A stretch of 11,087 nt of DNA from Gemella haemolysans (lineage in GTDB: Bacteria; Bacillota; Bacilli; Staphylococcales; Gemellaceae), in NCBI RefSeq assembly GCF_901873445.1, contig NZ_CABFLN010000044.1, positions 1 through 11,087 on the forward strand, read 5' to 3'. Shown here one piece after another: positions 1-11,087 of the stretch. The position numbers were made by a program, and so were the translations under genes. Under the pieces are notes generated by a model. That model saw nothing but the letters and a program-made list of their open reading frames with translations. It ran no database searches and was not told the DNA's origin. Every line of letters begins with the position of its first letter. Position 1 is the stretch's first letter.

Positions 1-2591
1 GGGATCATTTCCACTATATTCCAAAAAACAAAGTGGGAAAACAAACAGAAGTTGTTAAACCAACTCCAGTTATTCCTACTCCTACTCCTTCTTTACCTGA
101 AGAAAGTAAAATAGAAAAACCTGTAGAGACTACTAACCCCAAATCAGTCATCCCTTCACCAACGCTACCAAAAAAAGATAAGATAAAGCAACCTAAAGTT
201 GACACTACAGTCATAAAACCTAGTGTTCTATCATTTGCTGGTGTACAATTTAAAACAAGCGATGGTTTTGCATTAGATGAAAATACAGTAGGTACTCCTA
301 CTTCATTAGGTTTAGTAATTGATCACAATGGGCACCAACACTTTGTTTATTATAAACAATTAGTAAATTCTAAATTTGAAAAACTAATTCCTCAAAAATA
401 TTTAGAACAAGCTAAAAAAGAATATAAAGAATTAGAAGATAAAGTAACTGTAAAAATAAACTACTTAGCAAGTAAAAATAATATTGATAAAAATACTATT
501 AAATATGTCTCTACAGCAAAAGGAGATGCTCTTTCTTACAATGGAACAACTACACTATTAGAAGATATAAATTCTGAAAATAATAATGTTGCAACTCAAC
601 CTAAAGAGACTCCAAAAGTGGACGATAAAGTAGAAAATAAACAACCTGAAAGTAATAACGAAACTTATTCTGAGGAAGTTACTAAAAAAATCAACCATTT
701 AGCAAAAATATTAGGTATCGATTCTAAATTGATTAAATTAGTAGAAACTGAAAATGGACAAGCATTAACTTATCCTCATGGTGATCACAGCCATACAGTG
801 TTACTTAATGCAATTCATGTTGATGAGACTGAAGTAACTATTACGGATGAAATTCAAAAACAAATTAATTATATCGCTGAGGTTTATGGAGTACCAAAAG
901 AAGCTGTAAAAGTAACAAAAGACTTCTTTGTATTTAATGAACCTGCTCATGCATATGACCCAACTCATATTCATCCTTACTTAATACCTCGTGATAAATT
1001 CCATATTCCTGAAGTTACAGGTGACGATGAAGTTGATTTCGAAAATGAATTACTTGCTTTATCAAAACGTACAGGAATTCCTGCTGATAAGATTAAACGA
1101 GATGGTGATAAATTTGTAATACCTCATGGTGATCACGATCATTTCGTTAAAATTCTATCTAAAGGTGCTGATATTTACTATAAAAATAGAATTCCTAATA
1201 TAACTGGAACTTACGTTGCTGGTGATTTTGATAAAGAAGCTGTATTTAAACACATTGATGAACTAAAAGCAAATAATATTGCTAAACATAGCAATGATAA
1301 AAAACAAGCAAATCGTGTTAATCGTGCATTAGATCAGTTACGTGCGACAATTGAAGAATTACCAACTAACTCTACCAAAGGTTACCTAGAAATGTTAGAT
1401 AACTTTGATAAAAAATACATTCAAGAAGAAACAAATGCTGATACTTCTAAAAATGATGAATTTGTTAAAAAATATAATACTTTATTAAATCGTATTAAAG
1501 ATAACGATATTGAAAAGTACAATCTTTCAAAAGTAGAGTTAACTAATGAATTAAACATAGCTAGTGAAAACAAAGATGTTAATACTTTAAACAAAATCAA
1601 TCACTTATTAGATGAATTACAAAAATTTGAAGACCGTGAAAGTATTACTACAGTAAGTTATATAAAATATTTCTTAGAAAACATTGATAGTGACAAGATT
1701 GATAATAAACTACGTGAGGAACTTTCTTCACTTGTAAAAGATTCTTACGAATCTCAAGCATTTATAACAAGAACACCAATGAGAACACTTGTTACAAGAC
1801 TTATCAATGCGAAAAATGCTCTTCATTATGCACTTGAGCATAACACAAGTACTCAGCCTGAATTTGGTGAAAACTATAATAAACTAAATGTAAAAGATGA
1901 GGATGGTATGACACTTCGTTCATCTGCAGATCAGTTCACTAAAGAAGCAAATGATCCATCATTCCCTCTTGAATTTTCTAATGCTGACTATAATAACGCA
2001 GATTTCGAAAAATATGCAGGTAAAAAAGATGAAACTAATAATTCATCATCAGATAATGAGAGTAATAAAAAAGAAAATAACTCTACAACTAGTGAAAATA
2101 ATAAGGTAGATAGTACACCAAGTGGTGAAACTAATACACCTAAAGATGAGAATACAACAAGTATTGAAAACAACGCACCTAAAGATGAAAATACAACAAG
2201 TACTGAAGACGAAAGTACAACAGAAACTAAACAAGTTGAACTAACTCCTGAAGAAACTGCAAAATTAAACTTACTTGCTGGTATCTTTAGACTTTCTCCA
2301 AATAGCATGAATGTTATAGATACTCCATATGGAAAAGCTGTTAACTTCAATCTTGGTGGAAAAAATGAAACTATTTTAATAAAAGATATAGATAGATTAT
2401 TAGCAGCCCTAGTTTCAAGTGCTAAACCAAAAGAAACTTCAGAAACAAATAATGAAAACGGTACGACTCTTAACACAGAAAAAGAAGTTTCAAATTTTGA
2501 AAACAACACAACTTCAAATAACAATAAACACAATGCTGATGAAGAAAAAGCAACAATAGCGGTATCTGAAATAACAACCGAAGAAAAATAA
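1..2591 (+). CDS. Histidine-triad (Pht-like) surface protein, 5' partial
   Basis: The reading frame is open from the first base, before the GTG at 33, and the first codons read GDHFHYIPK, the tail of a classic Pht triad. The true start therefore lies upstream of the window. Pht proteins are streptococcal surface proteins that bind zinc through HxxHxH motifs and are linked to zinc acquisition and complement evasion. Further triads are HNGHQH (324-341), HGDHSH (777-794), THIH (966-974, variant) and HGDHDH (1125-1142). A proline-rich linker lies at about 57-225, and an alpha-helical, charged, triad-free region at about 1200-1850. A Ser/Thr/Asn-rich linker with a 13-residue repeat follows at about 2010-2235. 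The final domain (2235-2400) keeps the triad-domain fold pattern but has lost its histidines. There is no LPXTG motif or C-terminal membrane anchor. I see no terminator between the stop and the serS promoter. Family assignment is firm; the exact role here is inferred. Confidence 0.92.
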   Translation, partial: DHFHYIPKNKVGKQTEVVKPTPVIPTPTPSLPEESKIEKPVETTNPKSVIPSPTLPKKDKIKQPKVDTTVIKPSVLSFAGVQFKTSDGFALDENTVGTPTSLGLVIDHNGHQHFVYYKQLVNSKFEKLIPQKYLEQAKKEYKELEDKVTVKINYLASKNNIDKNTIKYVSTAKGDALSYNGTTTLLEDINSENNNVATQPKETPKVDDKVENKQPESNNETYSEEVTKKINHLAKILGIDSKLIKLVETENGQALTYPHGDHSHTVLLNAIHVDETEVTITDEIQKQINYIAEVYGVPKEAVKVTKDFFVFNEPAHAYDPTHIHPYLIPRDKFHIPEVTGDDEVDFENELLALSKRTGIPADKIKRDGDKFVIPHGDHDHFVKILSKGADIYYKNRIPNITGTYVAGDFDKEAVFKHIDELKANNIAKHSNDKKQANRVNRALDQLRATIEELPTNSTKGYLEMLDNFDKKYIQEETNADTSKNDEFVKKYNTLLNRIKDNDIEKYNLSKVELTNELNIASENKDVNTLNKINHLLDELQKFEDRESITTVSYIKYFLENIDSDKIDNKLREELSSLVKDSYESQAFITRTPMRTLVTRLINAKNALHYALEHNTSTQPEFGENYNKLNVKDEDGMTLRSSADQFTKEANDPSFPLEFSNADYNNADFEKYAGKKDETNNSSSDNESNKKENNSTTSENNKVDSTPSGETNTPKDENTTSIENNAPKDENTTSTEDESTTETKQVELTPEETAKLNLLAGIFRLSPNSMNVIDTPYGKAVNFNLGGKNETILIKDIDRLLAALVSSAKPKETSETNNENGTTLNTEKEVSNFENNTTSNNNKHNADEEKATIAVSEITTEEK
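2136..2213 (+). repeat. Two tandem 39-bp units in the Pht linker
   Basis: Units 2136-2174 and 2175-2213 encode TPKDENTTSIENN and APKDENTTSTEDE, differing at a few positions. They extend a disordered Thr/Asn-rich spacer before the last domain. Copy number could vary between strains by slippage or recombination. Confidence 0.85.
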
Positions 2592-2645: not shown

Positions 2646-4189
<1,544 letters not shown>

Positions 4190-4374: not shown

Positions 4375-4851
4375 ATGACAAGAAGAATAAAAAGAGATCC
4401 AAAAAAACAAGAATTAATAAGGCAATTAGTATCAGAATATGGAGTAGAAAGTATAGCCGATATACAAAACGCCTTAAAAAATTTACTAGGTGGTACGATA
4501 GAAGAACAAGCCAAAAACAACCTAGATATAGTAGCGGATAAGTGGGAAAGTAAATATCCAAAACTAATGAGTAGCTGGTATTCGGAATATGATGCAATAA
4601 CACCAATATTTAAATTTAGTGTAAAAGTAAGAACAGTAATATATACAACAAATGCAGTAGAAAGTGTAAATTCAAGATTAAGAAGCATGAATAAGAAAAG
4701 ATCAGTCTTTCCAAATAAAGTATCATTAGAAAAAGCGTTATATCTAGCTGTAGAAAGAATAGTAAAAAAATGGACAGGAGCGATAAAGCGATAAGAGATT
4801 GGGAGCAAATATATGGGAGAGTTAAGAATAATGCATGAGGATAGGATATAA
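4375..4851 (+). pseudogene. IS256-family transposase, internally deleted and frameshifted
   Basis: The ORF 4375-4794 gives 139 residues, against about 390-400 in the family. Residues 1-45 match the N-terminus (SIADIQNALKNLLGGTIEE). From about residue 46 the sequence jumps, in frame, to the C-terminal part (DKWESKYPKL, then IYTTNAVESVNSRLR and VFPNKVSLEKALYLAVERIVKKWTG). About 250 residues are missing, including the two catalytic Asp; the Glu of TTNAVE remains. The last residues are also damaged. An 8-bp tandem duplication (4779-4786, 4787-4794) creates the stop. Past it, the expected WEQIY lies in a shifted frame, and GELRIMHEDRI returns to the original frame and ends at 4851. It cannot be catalytic. 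It has a strong ribosome binding site, so a short DNA-binding protein could still be made. Confidence 0.9.
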
Positions 4852-5261: not shown

Positions 5262-6638
5262 TTATTGTTTTTGTTTTCTTCTAATTATTACCGCAACCCC
5301 TAAAATTAATAAAGAAACTTCTAGTAGGTCAGTTGTTTCTAATCCTGTTTTTGACAATTCTTCTATTTTTTCTTTATTATATACTTCTTTTTTATCATTA
5401 CTATCTTTATTATTATAATTCTCTTCTTTACTCTCTATTCTATATTCAGCTTTTACAGGTGTAACTATTTGAACACGACTTTCTAAATCTCTCGCTCCAA
5501 TTCTAATTCTTTCTAAAATAGTAAACTTACTAAAATGATTTATTTTAAATTGTATATAACCACTATTAAAACTGCTTTTAATTTTTTCTAATTCATTATT
5601 CTCAGCAATATGGTATACTTCTAACTCTGCGTTATCATTTTTCACAACTGACATCTTAACTGTTCGTTCAACATCACTATCTAATTTCTTGCCATCTTTT
5701 TCAAAATGAATTTCAAAAACTTCAACGACTTTATATTCACTACCTAATTTTTCGATAATAGTTTTATTTAAACTTTCGTCATTTATTGATCCTACAAAAA
5801 CATTATCGGCTTTTATTTTATCTTTATCAAATAATACAGCTACATCACGCCCCGAAAGTTTCGCTAATAAAACACGGTTTTCTACCTTAGCAGTATTTGT
5901 TGGAGTTTCTTGTTTTTTATCATTAGTTGCTTCTTCTTTACTTGAAGCCGCTTTTGAAGTTTCTTTTTCACCTTCTTTTTCAACTGAAGGCTCATTCTTT
6001 AAAGTATTTTCTATGATAGACTTCACTTTTTTAAGATTTTCATTATTAGGATTAACTGCTAACAATTCTTTAACTTTAACTAGCCAGATAGTTTTTATTT
6101 CCTGTTCTTTATTTTTATCTACTTTAATACTAGCTAATAGATAATTTACAAATTCTTTTTCATCAATTGAATTCCAATCAACCTTATCTTCTAAAATAGA
6201 TTCAACTAATTTCTCTTTTTTGTGAACTTTTACCACTGGAGCCGGTGTAGTTACCACAGGTTCTGTAGTTTTTGAAGTTTTTTCAAGAGAAATTTCTTCT
6301 GTTTTAGATTTAACTGAAACAGTTTTATCTGTTACACCTACACTATGATGTTCTATAATTTTTCCTTCCTGTTTACAATCTTCGCACACAGTAAGTGCAT
6401 TAGGTTCTGTAGACCTTGGAGCCGAGTCAGCTTTAGTTTTTATTTTTTCTGTTTTTTCTAAAACAGGTTTGTTTACATGTTCTAAATTAACATCGTGAAT
6501 AACTTCAGTATTTACAACAATATTATTTACATCTTCATGTGCATAAACTGTACCTAAAGATCCTGCAGCAATACCTATAAGTACACTTACTATACCTACT
6601 GAAACCTTTCTTATAGAATATTTTTTCTTATTAAACAT
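5262..6638 (-). CDS. YSIRK-signal, sortase-anchored surface protein (LSKTG variant)
   Basis: A 458-residue secreted wall protein. The signal peptide has the YSIRK motif at residues 7-11, then GIVSVLIGIAAGSLGTVYA with likely cleavage near residue 33. YSIRK signals direct secretion at the division septum in Gram-positive cocci. A Thr/Lys-rich stretch with CEDC (Cys 85 and 88) follows. Residues 140-215 are a small helical region, 217-255 a Lys/Glu linker, and about 256-376 a beta-rich domain. That domain has the pattern FEIHFEKDGK.., EVYHIAENNELEKI, YIQFKINHFSKFTI, often seen near the wall end of such proteins. The C-terminus has LSKTG (428-432), a hydrophobic segment (about 438-452) and RRKQKQ. 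LSKTG departs from LPXTG at the proline. The start is set by ATG 6638 behind AAGGAG (6645-6650). The ligand is unknown. It lies between IS relics, suggesting transfer. Confidence 0.9.
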   Translation of the reverse strand: MFNKKKYSIRKVSVGIVSVLIGIAAGSLGTVYAHEDVNNIVVNTEVIHDVNLEHVNKPVLEKTEKIKTKADSAPRSTEPNALTVCEDCKQEGKIIEHHSVGVTDKTVSVKSKTEEISLEKTSKTTEPVVTTPAPVVKVHKKEKLVESILEDKVDWNSIDEKEFVNYLLASIKVDKNKEQEIKTIWLVKVKELLAVNPNNENLKKVKSIIENTLKNEPSVEKEGEKETSKAASSKEEATNDKKQETPTNTAKVENRVLLAKLSGRDVAVLFDKDKIKADNVFVGSINDESLNKTIIEKLGSEYKVVEVFEIHFEKDGKKLDSDVERTVKMSVVKNDNAELEVYHIAENNELEKIKSSFNSGYIQFKINHFSKFTILERIRIGARDLESRVQIVTPVKAEYRIESKEENYNNKDSNDKKEVYNKEKIEELSKTGLETTDLLEVSLLILGVAVIIRRKQKQ

Positions 6639-6831: not shown

Positions 6832-7143
6832 TTATTTAATTTGATGTTTATTCATTTTCTCTTGGAAAATATCTGTAATAACTTTACGTAGCTCTTCTTT
6901 TTCTTTTTCTGGCCATTCACCTTCTTTTTGGGCAGCAGCATAAAGTTCTGGATATTCAATAGAAATTCTCTTAATTGTACGTGTGTTAGCATGTTTTCTT
7001 ACGAAAAATGGAATCTTCTTCATTAATTCTTGAGGAACTAACGAGAGTATTCTTTCTGCAGTCTCTTTATCACTAATTACTGAAAAAGTAAGACCTTTCT
7101 TAATCTGTTCTTGTTCCTGTTCTGTGAAATGTTCTAACTTCAT
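6832..7143 (-). CDS. Hypothetical protein, 103 residues
   Basis: I do not recognise this family. The protein is soluble by appearance, with no signal peptide, membrane segment or cysteine. It is highly charged, with predicted helices at about 6-17, 24-45 and 80-100. A short basic stretch, FFVRKHANTRTIKR, is at about residues 46-59, and AAAQKEGEWPEKEKEEL at about 69-85. ATG 7143 is supported by AGGAGAA a few bases upstream on the minus strand. A promoter and a Fur-like palindrome lie upstream and a strong terminator downstream, so it is a complete single-gene unit. Base composition matches its neighbours. A small regulatory or nucleic-acid-binding role is possible from the basic patch, but nothing in the sequence proves it. 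Confidence 0.75.
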   Translation of the reverse strand: MKLEHFTEQEQEQIKKGLTFSVISDKETAERILSLVPQELMKKIPFFVRKHANTRTIKRISIEYPELYAAAQKEGEWPEKEKEELRKVITDIFQEKMNKHQIK

Positions 7144-7180
7144 TCTTGTTCTCCTAAATATGTATATCTCTTAATTAAAG

Positions 7181-7209
7181 ATTATATACCAAGAGTCAGG
7201 AAACAACAA
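7181..7209 (-). promoter_or_regulatory. Promoter of the 103-residue gene
   Basis: On the minus strand, TTGTTG (7204-7209) is followed after 17 bp by a perfect TATAAT (7181-7186), about 38 bp before the start codon. Confidence 0.65.
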
Positions 7210-7220
7210 ATATATTCTAC

Positions 7221-7235
7221 TGATAGAGATTATCA
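7221..7235 (-). promoter_or_regulatory. Fur-like operator candidate
   Basis: On the minus strand the site reads TGATAATCTCTATCA. It matches the 7-1-7 Fur consensus TGATAATNATTATCA at all but two positions. It lies 11 bp upstream of the -35 of the 103-residue gene, which is not the usual place for simple repression. PerR and Zur boxes are similar, so the regulator is uncertain. Confidence 0.4.
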
Positions 7236-7408
7236 ATATTATAAGTTGCCAATTTACAAATTAATACTTAAAAACAATAACCACCATTTATAAATATTCT
7301 ATGACATAAGCAACTATCTTTGAACTTTGACCTACAACCATTTTAATTATGTCTAGATTATTTGTTTCTGAATATAAAAATAATGTTAAACTTAGTGAAA
7401 GTAAGAAG
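7236..7408. other. AT-rich spacer with no clear gene
   Basis: This stretch lies between the Fur-like site and the second ISL3-like end. It holds only a short minus-strand open stretch (reading LSLTLFLYSETNNL, then a further run to a stop) with no ribosome binding site. I see no RNA gene or repeat in it. Confidence 0.5.
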
Positions 7409-7481
7409 AAATCTAAGCAGCAAAATGCTGCCTAGATTTCTAGAGTGATTTTTTCCCATGCCCCGAACTTGACAAAGAGCC
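7409..7481 (-). mobile_element. ISL3-like end with internal hairpin, copy B
   Basis: The minus strand starts GGCTCTTTGTCAAGTTCGGG at 7481, close to ISL3-family ends. The internal hairpin (7409-7422 with 7426-7439) matches copy A, and one stem pair has changed on both sides (GCAGCA/TGCTGC here, GCAACA/TGTTGC in A), so the fold is conserved. No transposase remains. Similarity to copy A fades into the palindrome at 7482. Confidence 0.6.
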
Positions 7482-7555
7482 GATTTTTCGAACTATTTAG
7501 TCAAGGACAAGGGCTACGCCTTTTAAAAATCCTTGACTAAATAGTTCAAAAAATC
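7482..7555. repeat. Long palindrome, about 25-bp arms
   Basis: GAACTATTTAGTCAAGGA (7490-7507) is perfectly repeated in inverse at 7530-7547. GATTTTT outside it continues the pairing after one mismatch, to 7482 and 7555. The loop is 22 nt. It lies directly inside the right IS3-like end, so it may be that element's terminator, shielding it from outside transcription. No protein is encoded. Confidence 0.85.
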
Positions 7556-7598
7556 TAAAATAACTGAATACTTTATCCAACTTTTTGGGTGCAGTACC
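7556..7598 (-). mobile_element. IS3/IS150-like right end (remnant)
   Basis: Read on the minus strand from 7598, GGTACTGCACCCAAAAAGTT and the following bases mirror 4225-4267. Only about 43 bp of similarity remain. Immediate flanks outside the two ends do not show an obvious shared target duplication. Confidence 0.7.
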
Positions 7599-7654
7599 TA
7601 TCTCTGTTGTTTGGAAGATTATTTTGCTCAAAAAAGCAGACGAAGAACAAAGAA

Positions 7655-7787
7655 GACTTCCTATAGTAGTATGAGTAAGATAAGCCTATTTGGCTTATCT
7701 TACAGGAAACTTTGAGACTTTAGGCTCAAAGTTTAGACATGAGACCGCAGGGCTGCTGCCGTCCTAATACTACTATGACAGGAAGTC
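7655..7787. ncRNA. Candidate structured RNA with four-way junction
   Basis: The outer stem GACTTCCT (7655-7662) pairs perfectly with AGGAAGTC (7780-7787). After an asymmetric internal loop, AGTAGTAT (7665-7672) pairs with ATACTACT (7767-7774). Inside are three hairpins. H1 is a perfect 12 bp (7675-7686 with 7692-7703). H2 is a perfect 10 bp (7707-7716 with 7725-7734). H3 is GC-rich with one mismatch (7743-7750 with 7756-7763). The H2 loop TTAGG (7720-7724) can pair with CCTAA (7763-7767). There is no ORF in the region. The strand is undecided because nearly all pairs are Watson-Crick. On the minus strand it would lie about 90 nt after the stop of the large LPNTG gene, as a 3'-UTR element or separate RNA. 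I see no certain promoter or terminator for it. I do not recognise the class with confidence. Confidence 0.7.
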
Positions 7788-7878
7788 ATTAAAAAATATT
7801 TATTTAAGTAAATAGGTTTATCCTCAAAATCTGTAGAACAACTACAAAAATCGAAAAGCTCACAAAAGATTAGAAAAC

Positions 7879-10800
7879 CTAATTCTCATATTCTTCTTTC
7901 TTCCGTGTAACAAGCCCAATTCCACTCAAAGCTGCTAAAACTCCAAGTACTGTAACTCCATCATTAGTTTCTGTACCAGTATTTGGTAATTCTGGTTTAC
8001 GTAGATTTTCAGTTTTATTCGGTTTTTCTGGCTCGGGTTGTGGGTTAGGAATTTCAGGCGTAGATGGACCTGGAATAAACGGTCTTTGTATTTTTTCATA
8101 TAAATGAATTGTAATTCCATCATTTGTTGTTGTTTTAACAAATCTATAACTATTAAACTCCAATGCTTCTTTCTTACCAACTTCGTACTGCTTCAATTCA
8201 TTCCTTTCGGTATCAATCCAAACCGTTATTTCTATAATAGGTTTAACAATTTTTTCATCCGCCATGAAGACATGACTGATTTTATTTTTCGTTCGAATGG
8301 TTTCAAGAAAGACATGATTTGGAATTCGTCCTTTATCCTGTTCTCCTTTTTCCGATGGTTTTAGTTGATTTCCATTAACATCAATCCACTCGGTAATTAC
8401 TTTATATACAACTCTTTCTTCGACTGTTTCAGTATAAAAGTAATTTACAACTACCCCTTCTTTGGCAACTTTACCTTTTTTATTTTCTGGTTCAGCTTTC
8501 AAAGTATAAGTATATGTTCTTGTGATTGTTGCTAGTGGAGTTTCTTCGACTACTGTTTTTGGAGCAATCTCTTTTGCTTCAGTTTCATAATCTGTAAGCA
8601 CTCTTTTATTTTCTTGAGTATCACTCTCTGCTAATTTTTCTTCTGTTCCATCTTTGTAGTAATTCGCTACTACATTTGCATAAACTTTTGGTTTTTCAAC
8701 TGTAATCGTATAAGTTTGACTGATTTTTTCTTTTCTACCACTTTCCTCATCAGCCTCTACATCACTGTCAGAATCGGCTACTCTAGTTTTTCCATTGCCA
8801 AAATTACTTGAGACAATATACCCCATCTTTTCCAACTCTGCTATCTTTTCATTGACAGCTTCTTCAGGGAAATCTTTTCCAACAAGGGATTCCAAAATAA
8901 AGTCATTTTGATTTTCAACAGGAATTAGATGATTGTTGTCATCTCTTTCTAACACTTGAACTTTAGCTCGAGCAACTTCATCATAAAGATAAGTAACAGT
9001 TGTATTTACAGAAGATAATACTCCTGAAGGACGATAAGATGTTGCTGCAACACCTCTATGAGCTTTTCTCAAACGATAAGTAATTCCGTCTTTTTTTATG
9101 GTTCTTAGATAATCACTCGTCGAATCATAGTAGAAACCAATTTTATTACTAATTTCTAATAAGTCTTCTGGTTTATCTTTACCTTTGATTAAGTGTTTTT
9201 TATTGTATTTTCCAGCTACTTTTCCATCTTTATCTAGTCTTGCAAGGTATTCTTCATGAATTGTTTTTTCTTCTTCCTTGTTTGTTTCAGGGTTCAATAC
9301 TTTTTCAACTCTGTCTTCTTTTACAAGTTTATAAAGTTTTAATTCTTGGATTTTCTCACCTTTTTCATCACTAGCAAAAATATCACCATTTTCGTCAACC
9401 ACATACGTTTTGATTGTTTTTCCATTATGGTCCACTTTATAAGCCTTAACGATTTTATTCTCAACAATTTCAAGGACATTTCCATTTTCAAATACTTTAT
9501 GTGTTTTTACTAATTGATCATTTTTATCTGTTTCAGATAAATTTCCTTCCTCATCAACCCTAATAAAGTTTCCAGATTGAGCTAATGTTGCACTATCTTT
9601 TAACTCTTTTCCATTATTATCCTTATATTTAACTGTAATATTTCCTTTAAATAAAAGTTTTAATTGATGGGTTCTTGTAGTTGCGTCAATTTGATCATGG
9701 ATTTTTTTTAAGCCTTTTTCAACTTCTTTAAAAGATTCATTAATATCTTGAATTTTTTCCTTTTCATCTTTGATTTTAGATTTAGTAGATTCTAGTTCAT
9801 CTTTTAATGATTGTACTTCTTCTTTTAATTTTTCAGAGTCATCCTCTAATTTCTTAGCTTCATCTTTGAAAGGTTTGGCTTCATCTTCAAGTTTTTTAAT
9901 TTCATCTTTGAAAGGTTTGGCTTCATCTTCAAGTTTTTTAATGTCATCTTTAAAAGGTTTGGCTTCATCCTCTAATTTTTTTGCTTCATCTTCAAGTTTT
10001 TTAGCCTCATCTTCTAATTTTTTCAATTCATCTTGGCTTAGTTTCTCTTTATCTTTTAATTTATCTGCAACTGATTTTTGTTTTTCTTCAAGTTCTTTTT
10101 GCTTATCTTCAATAGGTTTTAGTTTTTCACCAATTTCTTTTTGTTTATCTTCAATAGGTTTTAGTTTTTCACCAATTTCTTTTTGTTTATCTTCGAAAGA
10201 TTTTATTTTATCTCCTAGCTCGTTTTGTTTATCCTCTAATTCTTTTTGTTTGCTTTCAAGAGGTTTCAATTTATCTTCGAGTGAAGGTATATTTTTTTCC
10301 AATTCCTTGATTAATGTTTCTTTTTCAGCTCGTTTTTCATCAACTTTTTCTTTTTCTTCTTTAATGGTTTGATCAAGAATACGATGAGATAGAGCTTGAG
10401 CTGCTTTTAAGGTGTCTTGGACAATCGAAAAGTTTGCTAAAACTGGTAGGTTATATTGTATACGTGGACTTTGCTTATTAATCCCAACTCGTTTATTATT
10501 ACCAGAATATATTTGGATTTTATAAGCAATGACATCTTTTTCTAAGTGAATATCTCCTGTTGAGAAGTATCCACCTTTACCTAGTTTATCCTGATCACCA
10601 CTAATCTCTGTATTAATTCTTTCTGATAATTTGTCATCAGGTAGCACTTTTGAACGTGTGACATTATCTCTTTCAACAAAAAGGTTCGTGAATTTTGAAA
10701 GACCATCTTCTTCTCCCGCAGCAAGTTCATTAGTACGATACTTTTTATATTCAGCTTCTGTCACTTCGCTACTATCAGGTTTTCTAGTTGCTTCCATGTG

Positions 10801-11087
10801 TGAGCCAAGGATTTTCGCTTCTTTACTACCGTTTCTTGCTTCCTTGTAAGTATAGTTATTTGTGGATCTAATAGCTGATTCTAAGGCAGAGATTTCTTTG
10901 TTTAGTTCATTTTTTTTCTCTTCATCAGCTGTTTCTAATGCTGCTTTTTTATCTGCTAGTCTATTCTTTAACTCTACACGATGTTTGGCTACTTTATCTG
11001 GATCCGTTTGGAGTTCTAATTGGTCTGTATCTGCATGATAGATAATTTTTTTCGCAGTTGGTAATATAAAATCTAATAATTTATAGA
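7879..11087 (-). CDS. Large LPNTG-anchored coiled-coil surface protein, 5' partial
   Basis: The frame is open from the stop (7879-7881) to the window edge, giving about 1068 visible codons. The ATG at 10797 is internal because 96 codons upstream of it, reading for example DTDQLELQTDPDKVAKHRVELKNR, continue the protein. The first visible part (about 10390-11087) is helical and then a probable binding domain with GKGGYFSTGDIHLEKDVIAYKI. A long Lys/Glu coiled coil follows (about 9690-10390), built from 14-residue repeats such as KPIEDKQKEIGEKL and KPFKDEIKKLEDEA. Next come beta-rich modules, including MucBP-like strands (ITVKYKDNNGKEL, VVANYYKDGTEEKL) and two repeats with EWIDVNGNQLKPSEKG and VWIDTERNELKQYEVG. 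A proline spacer, LPNTG (7975-7989), a hydrophobic segment and RKKEEYEN end the protein, so sortase A should fix it to the wall. Host adhesion is likely; the ligand is unknown. Confidence 0.93.
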   Translation of the reverse strand, partial: YKLLDFILPTAKKIIYHADTDQLELQTDPDKVAKHRVELKNRLADKKAALETADEEKKNELNKEISALESAIRSTNNYTYKEARNGSKEAKILGSHMEATRKPDSSEVTEAEYKKYRTNELAAGEEDGLSKFTNLFVERDNVTRSKVLPDDKLSERINTEISGDQDKLGKGGYFSTGDIHLEKDVIAYKIQIYSGNNKRVGINKQSPRIQYNLPVLANFSIVQDTLKAAQALSHRILDQTIKEEKEKVDEKRAEKETLIKELEKNIPSLEDKLKPLESKQKELEDKQNELGDKIKSFEDKQKEIGEKLKPIEDKQKEIGEKLKPIEDKQKELEEKQKSVADKLKDKEKLSQDELKKLEDEAKKLEDEAKKLEDEAKPFKDDIKKLEDEAKPFKDEIKKLEDEAKPFKDEAKKLEDDSEKLKEEVQSLKDELESTKSKIKDEKEKIQDINESFKEVEKGLKKIHDQIDATTRTHQLKLLFKGNITVKYKDNNGKELKDSATLAQSGNFIRVDEEGNLSETDKNDQLVKTHKVFENGNVLEIVENKIVKAYKVDHNGKTIKTYVVDENGDIFASDEKGEKIQELKLYKLVKEDRVEKVLNPETNKEEEKTIHEEYLARLDKDGKVAGKYNKKHLIKGKDKPEDLLEISNKIGFYYDSTSDYLRTIKKDGITYRLRKAHRGVAATSYRPSGVLSSVNTTVTYLYDEVARAKVQVLERDDNNHLIPVENQNDFILESLVGKDFPEEAVNEKIAELEKMGYIVSSNFGNGKTRVADSDSDVEADEESGRKEKISQTYTITVEKPKVYANVVANYYKDGTEEKLAESDTQENKRVLTDYETEAKEIAPKTVVEETPLATITRTYTYTLKAEPENKKGKVAKEGVVVNYFYTETVEERVVYKVITEWIDVNGNQLKPSEKGEQDKGRIPNHVFLETIRTKNKISHVFMADEKIVKPIIEITVWIDTERNELKQYEVGKKEALEFNSYRFVKTTTNDGITIHLYEKIQRPFIPGPSTPEIPNPQPEPEKPNKTENLRKPELPNTGTETNDGVTVLGVLAALSGIGLVTRKKEEYEN
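9861..9986 (-). repeat. Three 42-bp tandem units in the coiled coil
   Basis: Units start at 9861, 9903 and 9945 and are almost identical, with more drift in the third. Each encodes 14 residues of the KLEDEAKPFKDEIK type, so gain or loss of a unit keeps both the reading frame and the coil's repeat. Confidence 0.88.
10103..10228 (-). repeat. Second set of 42-bp tandem units in the coiled coil
   Basis: Units 10103-10144 and 10145-10186 are essentially identical, and 10187-10228 is a diverged third. They encode 14-residue units of the KPIEDKQKEIGEKL type. Period length matches the set at 9861-9986 while the sequence differs, so they probably share an origin and then expanded separately. Confidence 0.85.

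What the first reader, a model, noticed from the sequence alone, without database searches (positions are those of the whole stretch)
7655..7787. Compact four-way-junction RNA-like element in an intergenic region
Five helices nest without conflict in 133 nt: an 8-bp closing stem, an 8-bp second stem, and three hairpins of 12, 10 and 8 bp (the last with one mismatch). Four are perfect. The third hairpin is strikingly GC-rich in a very AT-rich region, and nothing here encodes protein. Chance is an unlikely explanation for so many ordered perfect stems. It lies just outside the IS mosaic and 3' of a large surface-protein gene on the minus strand, so it could be a 3'-UTR element, a free small RNA or part of a mobile unit. 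This is the strongest candidate for something undescribed in the window.
Basis: seen in the sequence. Interest (0 to 1): 0.85.

Follow-up and report, generated by a model that had tools for sequence, protein, structure and literature searches.

The report
Mobile structured RNA repeat between genes
The window carries one copy of a 130-base folded element that mobile DNA appears to have scattered between genes, mostly near gene ends, in streptococci and some of their relatives, and whose fold evolution has kept; what the fold does is not yet known.

Summary
The structure is real (-59.8 kcal/mol, z -8.9, 0 of 200 shuffles), but it is one copy of a dispersed family. In a class-wide sample all 25 positives of 398 fell in one genus.
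Covariation is overwhelming: 46 of 49 pairs show compensatory change.
Many streptococcal copies are cargo in non-autonomous IS1182-family elements at intrinsic terminators; in 32 of 98 places the hairpin is detectably duplicated. In place, stems vary about five times less than unpaired bases.
The nearest named relative is Rfam SSRC8_2, an S. pyogenes sRNA; the window matches only its core, below threshold.
Best reading: a mobile, selectively retained RNA module of transcript ends. Function is inferred; copies in the window's own family mostly lie in front of genes, which counts against it.

The parts
7655..7787 (+). core of the element: covarying stems P1a, P1b, P2, P3, P4, P5 (two stacked three-way junctions)
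   Evidence: fold; covariance-model match 7647-7794, 106.4 bits (the window is one of the 21 model sequences); covariation
7623..7802 (+). stretch homologous to one Granulicatella elegans copy (82.7% identity over 191 aligned columns): likely extent of the inserted unit
   Evidence: blastn
7655..7662 (+). P1a 5' arm; pairs with 7780-7787
   Evidence: 90.2% and 96.2% of cells paired in two alignments
7663..7672 (+). P1b 5' arm; pairs with 7767-7776
   Evidence: 82.5% and 66.9% over all ten pairs; the six pairs of the model 94.9% and 90.5%
7675..7703 (+). P2 hairpin, 12 bp, 5-nt loop
   Evidence: 84.2% and 84.8%
7704..7706 (+). P5 5' arm; pairs with 7763-7765 and encloses P3 and P4
   Evidence: comparative only: two core pairs 94.9% and 94.6% kept, with rare compensatory changes
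7707..7734 (+). P3 hairpin with the conserved bulged A and loop (GAGAC-YYUA-GGCUC)
   Evidence: 99.3% and 99.5% of cells paired; richest block of invariant columns
7736..7760 (+). P4 hairpin in the comparative register (7736-7739/7757-7760; inner 7742-7743/7753-7754 and 7745-7746/7750-7751); this copy has A at 7737 where the other 20 aligned sequences have G
7708..7761 (+). match to Rfam RF02616 SSRC8_2, model positions 152-209 of 281, 26 bits (gathering score 72)
7879..11085 (-). LPXTG surface-protein gene (open at the window's end) whose stop codon faces the element from 84 bp

Best explanation
The feature is one copy of a mobile, multicopy structured-RNA element (the SSRC8-like family). Shown: (1) the fold is conserved by compensatory change; (2) sampled copies in Streptococcus and Granulicatella are rarely between divergent genes and mostly face stop codons; (3) many streptococcal copies are cargo between the ends of IS1182-family elements, and in about a third of places examined a terminator hairpin is detectably duplicated on both sides; (4) after insertion the core evolves more slowly than the rest of the same mobile element, with stems far more constrained than loops. 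Inferred: the folded module acts at transcript ends. Where it is flanked by U-tracts on both sides (Granulicatella) it may itself be a bidirectional terminator or 3'-end block placed right after stop codons. Where it lies between twin terminator hairpins (Streptococcus), read-through past the first hairpin would yield a transcript ending at the second, the extent reported for SSRC8. The conserved unpaired bases of P3 and P4 probably bind a common partner, unknown. The window copy is closest to Granulicatella copies and probably reached this genome by horizontal transfer; it would act in the 3' region of the LPXTG gene.
For: Fold. Covariation: 19 of 33 pairs, 21 sequences; 46 of 49 pairs, 83 distinct sequences; 44 of 49, 65 distinct; slid controls fall to 34-50% paired. 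Copies. Mobile ends and hairpin duplication:: 32 of 98 distinct places exceed the 99th percentile of shuffled flanks (10 of 971 controls). IS1182 transposase. In-place constraint, 17 orthologous places: 21 of 1666 paired against 53 of 866 unpaired columns vary (p 5e-11); 58 of 2295 core against 120 of 1910 other mobile-element columns vary (p 2e-9); 0 against 19 gap columns. Context: divergent neighbours in 1 of 98 Streptococcus places and 5 of 64 Granulicatella copies (of all intergenic gaps over 60 bp in the sampled Granulicatella DNA, 33 of 187); in Granulicatella 30 of 47 facing stop codons lie within 15 bp (random placement mean 6.9, maximum 16). U-tracts. SSRC8. Closest copy.
Against: No transcript from the window was seen and nothing shows a biochemical function. 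In the window's own family 7 of 9 placed copies (14 strong matches exist, 9 were fetched) lie in tandem gene pairs, 6 of the 7 nearer the next gene's start (44-110 bp) than the previous stop, none within 15 bp of a facing stop. In Streptococcus stop codons are not unusually close (13 of 85 within 15 bp, random mean 7.5, maximum 18), and copies lack a U-tract of their own. G-U exceeds A-C overall (49 to 11, alignment-free), but in Granulicatella the alignment count is weak (34 to 30 distinct types), in the window's relatives it is 6 to 8, and within orthologous sets about even (5 to 4, read), so the RNA strand is not settled. In Granulicatella and the window the facing gene would transcribe the opposite strand. 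The window lacks the IS1182-type ends and those of its relatives. One of nine Streptococcus genomes tested has none of those ends although it has copies (G051). Gene conversion could mimic some paired changes (L237, dropped, looks converted). 66 of 98 places show no significant hairpin duplication by this test.
Confidence: 0.5

Rival explanations
1. A DNA-level parasite only: non-autonomous transposable elements whose palindromes matter as DNA (extruded hairpins for transposition or replication), with paired changes produced by template switching between arms rather than by selection on an RNA.
For: Low G-U content (88 G-U against 3159 Watson-Crick cells in Granulicatella) and near-balanced G-U and A-C types there; loop sequences in both orientations among P4 loops of close copies; insertion at DNA palindromes is reported for IS1182 relatives (PMC4923244, PMC5678879, passages read).
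Against: Many of the most conserved bases are unpaired or in the P3 apex; the apex pair is C-G or U-G in 59 of 60 paired sequences (5 more unpaired, types not shown) and 79 of 80; the core is more constrained than the rest of the same mobile element in place; the same core occurs in units with at least two kinds of end.
Confidence: 0.25
2. A trans-acting small RNA family: each copy makes an SSRC8-like sRNA that base-pairs with or titrates a partner.
For: SSRC8 was detected by Northern blot and its ends mapped by circular RACE (PMC3675131); an S. ratti copy aligns over the model's full length, from the first hairpin to the second U-tract.
Against: The promoters listed in that paper's section do not include SSRC8; in Granulicatella 29 of 64 copies have both neighbours on the opposite strand. 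No target search was run.
Confidence: 0.1
3. A cis-acting 5' leader element that controls the gene downstream, at least in the window's family.
For: In the window's family 7 of 9 placed copies lie in the sense of both neighbours, with the next start 44-294 bp away.
Against: Only 16 of 98 Streptococcus places and 11 of 64 Granulicatella copies have that arrangement; the window copy itself has minus-strand neighbours on both sides; the downstream genes were not compared.
Confidence: 0.08
4. A part of the transposition machinery: the RNA core is needed by a transposase or regulates it.
For: Core retained in units with IS1182-type ends across species.
Against: Three IS1182-type elements examined lack the core (L189-L191); the core also occurs with unrelated-looking ends; it is constrained after insertion.
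Confidence: 0.07

Closest known systems
Rfam RF02616 SSRC8_2 (Streptococcus sRNA 8, PMC3675131)
   Same: Shares P3 and P4 and the conserved core; an S. ratti copy aligns over all 281 positions at 69.8 bits and another copy from the Streptococcus set passes the gathering score (L134, 74.1 against 72).
   Different: The window matches only positions 152-209 at 26 bits. In the alignment to L024 the Rfam model's outer stems fall on the flanking hairpin copies and mobile-element ends, and P1/P2 are not drawn as found here. In the passages and section I read, SSRC8 is treated as an sRNA with partial BLAST homologues (142-250), not as a mobile repeat.
IS1182-family insertion sequences and IS1272 (PMC4923244, PMC5678879)
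   Same: Many streptococcal copies carry the same kind of ends as IS1182-family transposase genes found here and lie at terminator hairpins.
   Different: IS1272 is described as replacing or cutting into the hairpin without duplication. Here the whole hairpin is duplicated, as in one branch (6b) of the model in PMC5678879 Fig. 13 (legend read). The window copy has no such ends.
Pneumococcal BOX, RUP and SPRITE repeats (PMC3049150)
   Same: Small dispersed structured repeats, over-represented between convergent genes.
   Different: Stated there to be almost absent outside S. pneumoniae/S. mitis (a BOX-related set in S. suis), whereas this family is in 105 of 118 Streptococcus genomes. Locus L148 shows what I recognise from memory as a BOX element beside a copy of this one; no BOX model was run.

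Membership tests
Rfam SSRC8_2 (RF02616) | Score at or above the gathering cut-off (72 bits) | tested here: not met
   Window 26 bits, positions 152-209 only; of relatives, L134 74.1 bits meets it, L024 69.8 does not
Rfam SSRC8_2 (RF02616) | Core hairpins P3 and P4 with their conserved bases | tested here: met
   Alignments; six Granulicatella copies 26.6-43.7 bits
Rfam SSRC8_2 (RF02616) | Expressed as an sRNA | not testable with these tools
   Only the S. pyogenes member is reported, by Northern blot and RACE (PMC3675131)
SSRC8-like dispersed RNA element (defined here by model R2) | Match to the covariance model with the whole architecture | tested here: met
   106.4 bits, model positions 1-149; by construction, since the window is one of the 21 model sequences. 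Independently, the window's Rfam match led to the relatives and it matches a Granulicatella copy at 82.7%
IS1182-family non-autonomous element | Terminal repeats of the CAGANTGNAGACAAA kind | tested here: not met
   0 matches at up to 2 mismatches in the window; present in 8 of 9 Streptococcus genomes tested
IS1182-family non-autonomous element | Duplicated terminator hairpin at the insertion site | tested here: not met
   No direct repeat family in 7000-8000 has copies on both sides next to 7655-7787
Intrinsic terminator | GC-rich stem followed at once by a U-run | tested here: not met
   The scan of 7150-8000 reports only a minus-strand hairpin at 7441-7407, not the element
BOX/RUP/SPRITE | Sequence match to the published modules | not tested
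   No models available; distribution differs
raiA or other Rfam Firmicute motifs | Rfam match on either strand | tested here: not met
   Only SSRC8_2 and two weak unrelated matches at 7600-7860 up to E 5

The most novel reading that the evidence does not exclude
A portable RNA: one folded module of about 130 nt that has ridden at least two kinds of mobile-element ends across three genera, been planted beside terminators, stop codons and gene starts in up to more than a hundred places per genome, and been kept by selection in place as a genome-wide set of RNAs sharing one binding partner. That would be a regulatory RNA network built by transposition.
Probability: 0.3. Interest if true: 0.88.

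Novelty: new variant of a known kind. Interest (0 to 1): 0.7.

Why it matters
A strongly covarying fold present in about nine tenths of sampled Streptococcus genomes (105 of 118) has been on record, as far as my searches show, only as one sRNA entry in Rfam. If it works at transcript ends, it links transposition into terminators to the spread of a regulatory RNA, and some genomes offer dozens of natural replicates for testing what such conserved structures do. It also shows hairpin duplication at IS1182-type insertions, a branch of a published model for which I recall no natural examples.

Tried and rejected
Chance: rejected. Plain terminator: the window element is not reported by the terminator scan. 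Phage or plasmid element: no match at E 1e-5 in the plasmid and phage collections, no exact pattern match in viral contigs. DNA similarity or a single-sequence model as a way to find kin failed: 0 of 40 relatives at E 0.001, only chance-level matches in 9 genomes (best E 0.04), 1 of 15 at E 1.12. A search with Rfam RF02616 itself gave 4 of 15 family genomes at E up to 1, none over the cut-off, none of them among the four that model R2 finds, and it also rang in 2 of 14 control genomes. The weak Rfam match to the window gave the pattern used: 45 loci, of which I took 28 as relatives by eye (Streptococcus and Granulicatella); the other 17 lie in unrelated taxa and were set aside as chance without further test.

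Limits of the counts: one search scored at most 26 candidates per genome, at most 41, at most 7, at most 150, so copy numbers are lower bounds and absences are weak. The Streptococcus loci are 105, of which 7 are second fetches of the same place; repeat the counts on the 98 distinct places (17 orthologous sets). They are high-scoring copies, 80 of the 105 fetches from seven genomes. L237 was dropped from its set because its core looks converted from another copy. One search dropped 7 of 64 and 14 of 59 copies without the P3 anchor. The 64 Granulicatella copies come from 20 stretches chosen because they hold copies, and the weakest matches were left out. One search's context table was typed by hand for 54 of 64 copies, with one distance assumed; its distances are superseded, and only its U-tract averages are used. 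CM-fitted alignments (A3, A4, A5) lean to the model's structure. Of 30 loci fetched with the IS1182-type end, 19 hold the core by a text pattern and 3 more by the model (one weakly, 23.1 bits), 4 hold IS1182-type transposase sequence and 4 neither within reach. Model R1 led nowhere.

Full report
What is there. Positions 7655-7787 fold, on either strand, far better than shuffled sequence. The GC-rich hairpin is the minimum-energy fold of this copy, but relatives do not support its register; they support a P4 starting at 7736 and a short helix P5 (7704-7706/7763-7765) around P3 and P4. The window's A at 7737, G in the other 20 sequences, weakens P4 here.

How relatives were found. Simple DNA similarity failed. 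A weak Rfam match to SSRC8_2 gave a sequence pattern that found 45 loci in named genomes; 28 of them, all Streptococcus or Granulicatella, show the same layout. Twenty-one sequences including the window were aligned and made a covariance model. Ten of those genomes, searched whole, held 3 to 125 matches. Wider searches gave 105 of 118 genomes of the S. ratti genus; 3 of 76 genomes of the G. elegans family, two of them with 41 matches at the cap and one marginal at 9e-4; 4 of 15 genomes of the window's family, with 14 strong matches and one weak (E 0.4) in one of the four; and 25 of 398 genomes of the class, all in one genus. Candidate caps make these lower bounds.

Covariation. On 83 distinct sequences 94.3% of cells are paired, 46 of 49 pairs have a change on both sides, and 774 cells carry double changes against 191.5 +/- 11.7 in shuffles; sliding the partners by 1-3 columns leaves 36-50% paired. 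A mostly streptococcal set gives 95.7%, 44 of 49 and 626 against 166.5, slides 34-47%. These alignments are fitted to the model; the unfitted alignment already gave 19 of 33 pairs with compensatory change.

Which strand. Counting pairs without an alignment, G-U beats A-C 25 to 7 in Granulicatella and 24 to 4 in Streptococcus; the ten copies of the window's group show neither. With fitted alignments the figures are 88 to 54 (distinct types 34 to 30), 70 to 32 (32 to 15), and 6 to 8 in the window's relatives. Within orthologous sets single changes are about even. I call the window's + strand likely for Streptococcus and open elsewhere.

Mobility. In S. ratti and relatives the repeated unit runs well beyond the core and is bounded by ends of the CAGANTGNAGACAAA kind; the same intrinsic-terminator hairpin stands on both sides of many copies. 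In 98 distinct Streptococcus places, 32 have flank similarity above the 99th percentile of shuffled flanks, against 10 of 971 controls; the stronger matches listed are mostly hairpins starting at the element's right edge. The end pattern occurs in 8 of 9 Streptococcus genomes tested. The same ends bound transposase genes that NCBIfam names IS1182 family (two pieces of one gene, E 9e-66 and 9e-40, each below the whole-protein cut-off), and two of the three such elements examined also sit between duplicated hairpins, without the RNA core. In two genomes of the window's genus seven copies lie within other repeated ends. G. elegans has tandem arrays with a period near 180 bp. PMC5678879 proposes hairpin duplication as one branch of an IS1272 model (abstract and passages read); PMC4923244 reports terminator targeting without duplication (passages read).

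Place in the genome. Around 98 Streptococcus places the arrangement is convergent in 51, tandem in 45 and divergent in 1, with 1 lacking a right neighbour; around 64 Granulicatella copies, 18, 40, 5 and 1. In Granulicatella the stop codon of the facing gene is within 15 bp in 30 of 47 cases, against 6.9 expected from random placement, and both flanks of P1 are U-tract-like (6.3 A of 10 left, 5.3 T of 10 right, background 3.4). Streptococcal copies show neither: 13 of 85 (loci with 7 repeats) within 15 bp against 7.5 expected, T 1.5 of 10 right. In the window's family the picture differs: 7 of 9 placed copies have both neighbours in the copy's own sense, and 6 of the 7 are nearer the next start (44-110 bp) than the previous stop. 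In the window the LPXTG stop codon is 84 bp away and the scan reports no terminator between it and the element.

Selection in place. For 17 orthologous streptococcal places (L237 dropped), 21 of 1666 paired columns and 53 of 866 unpaired columns vary (p 5e-11); of the 18 varying pairs, 3 changed on both sides and stay paired, 5 stay paired by G-U, 10 are broken. The core varies in 58 of 2295 columns, the rest of the mobile element in 120 of 1910 (p 2e-9), with 0 against 19 gap columns. Columns are not independent and gene conversion is possible, so the p values are indicative.

The window copy. Its closest fetched relative is a G. elegans copy, 82.7% over 191 columns, window 7623-7802; the 25 best matches listed are all from G. 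elegans or its unnamed relative G205. The nine placed copies of the window's own family score 51.8-73.5 bits against 106.4 for the window, which is in the model. Horizontal transfer from a Granulicatella-like donor is the simplest reading (inference).

Relation to what is known. SSRC8 (PMC3675131; passages, section 17) was seen on Northern blots and mapped by circular RACE; its table of BLAST homologues in streptococci covers only the 142-250 part, which fits a shared core. An S. ratti copy aligns to the Rfam model from the first duplicated hairpin to the U-tract of the second, so the mapped SSRC8 RNA probably spans hairpin, element, hairpin. Searches for the element as a described repeat or for its sequence found nothing (open-licence papers only). 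BOX, RUP and SPRITE differ in distribution (PMC3049150, passages).

Verdict. Real, not chance, not unique, partly known by name, and unrecognised, as far as I could search, as a widespread mobile structured element under selection. Its function at transcript ends is inferred, and the placement of copies in the window's own family is the main result against it.

Noticed in passing
window 2654-2833 (+): T-box leader match (47.9 bits, gathering 93) upstream of the seryl-tRNA synthetase gene at 2909-4189.
   Followed up: no
window 4375-4794 (+): C-terminal fragment of a Mutator-family transposase (profile positions 257-377 of 379), IS256-type by recall.
   Followed up: no
window 7482-7555: 26-nt inverted repeat (96% complementary, 22 nt apart) of unknown origin; a promoter-like match lies at 7533-7561 reading towards the element (5 such matches found, 3.6 expected).
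   Followed up: no
window 7407-7441 (-): Terminator-like hairpin (16 pairs) on the minus strand, downstream of the element for the LPXTG transcript.
   Followed up: no
L189, L190: IS1182-type elements themselves flanked by duplicated terminator hairpins.
   Followed up: partly
P4 loops in the orthologous sets (e.g. L146, L207): Loop sequences occur in both orientations (CGTAG and CTACG) among orthologous copies, as if hairpin loops had inverted.
   Followed up: no
L131 9362-9876, L133 11470-11799, L132 17254-18001: Tandem arrays of the element in Granulicatella elegans, period about 180 bp.
   Followed up: partly
L194, L246: The two copies of a duplicated terminator have diverged but both still look like hairpins.
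   Followed up: no
L074, L078, L081, L083, L082, L076: Copies in the window's family lie 44-110 bp before a gene start, in its sense; the downstream genes were not compared.
   Followed up: no
window 3-2591 (+) and 5262-6638 (-): Histidine-triad protein (Strep_his_triad) open at the window's left end, and a YSIRK-signal surface protein.
   Followed up: no
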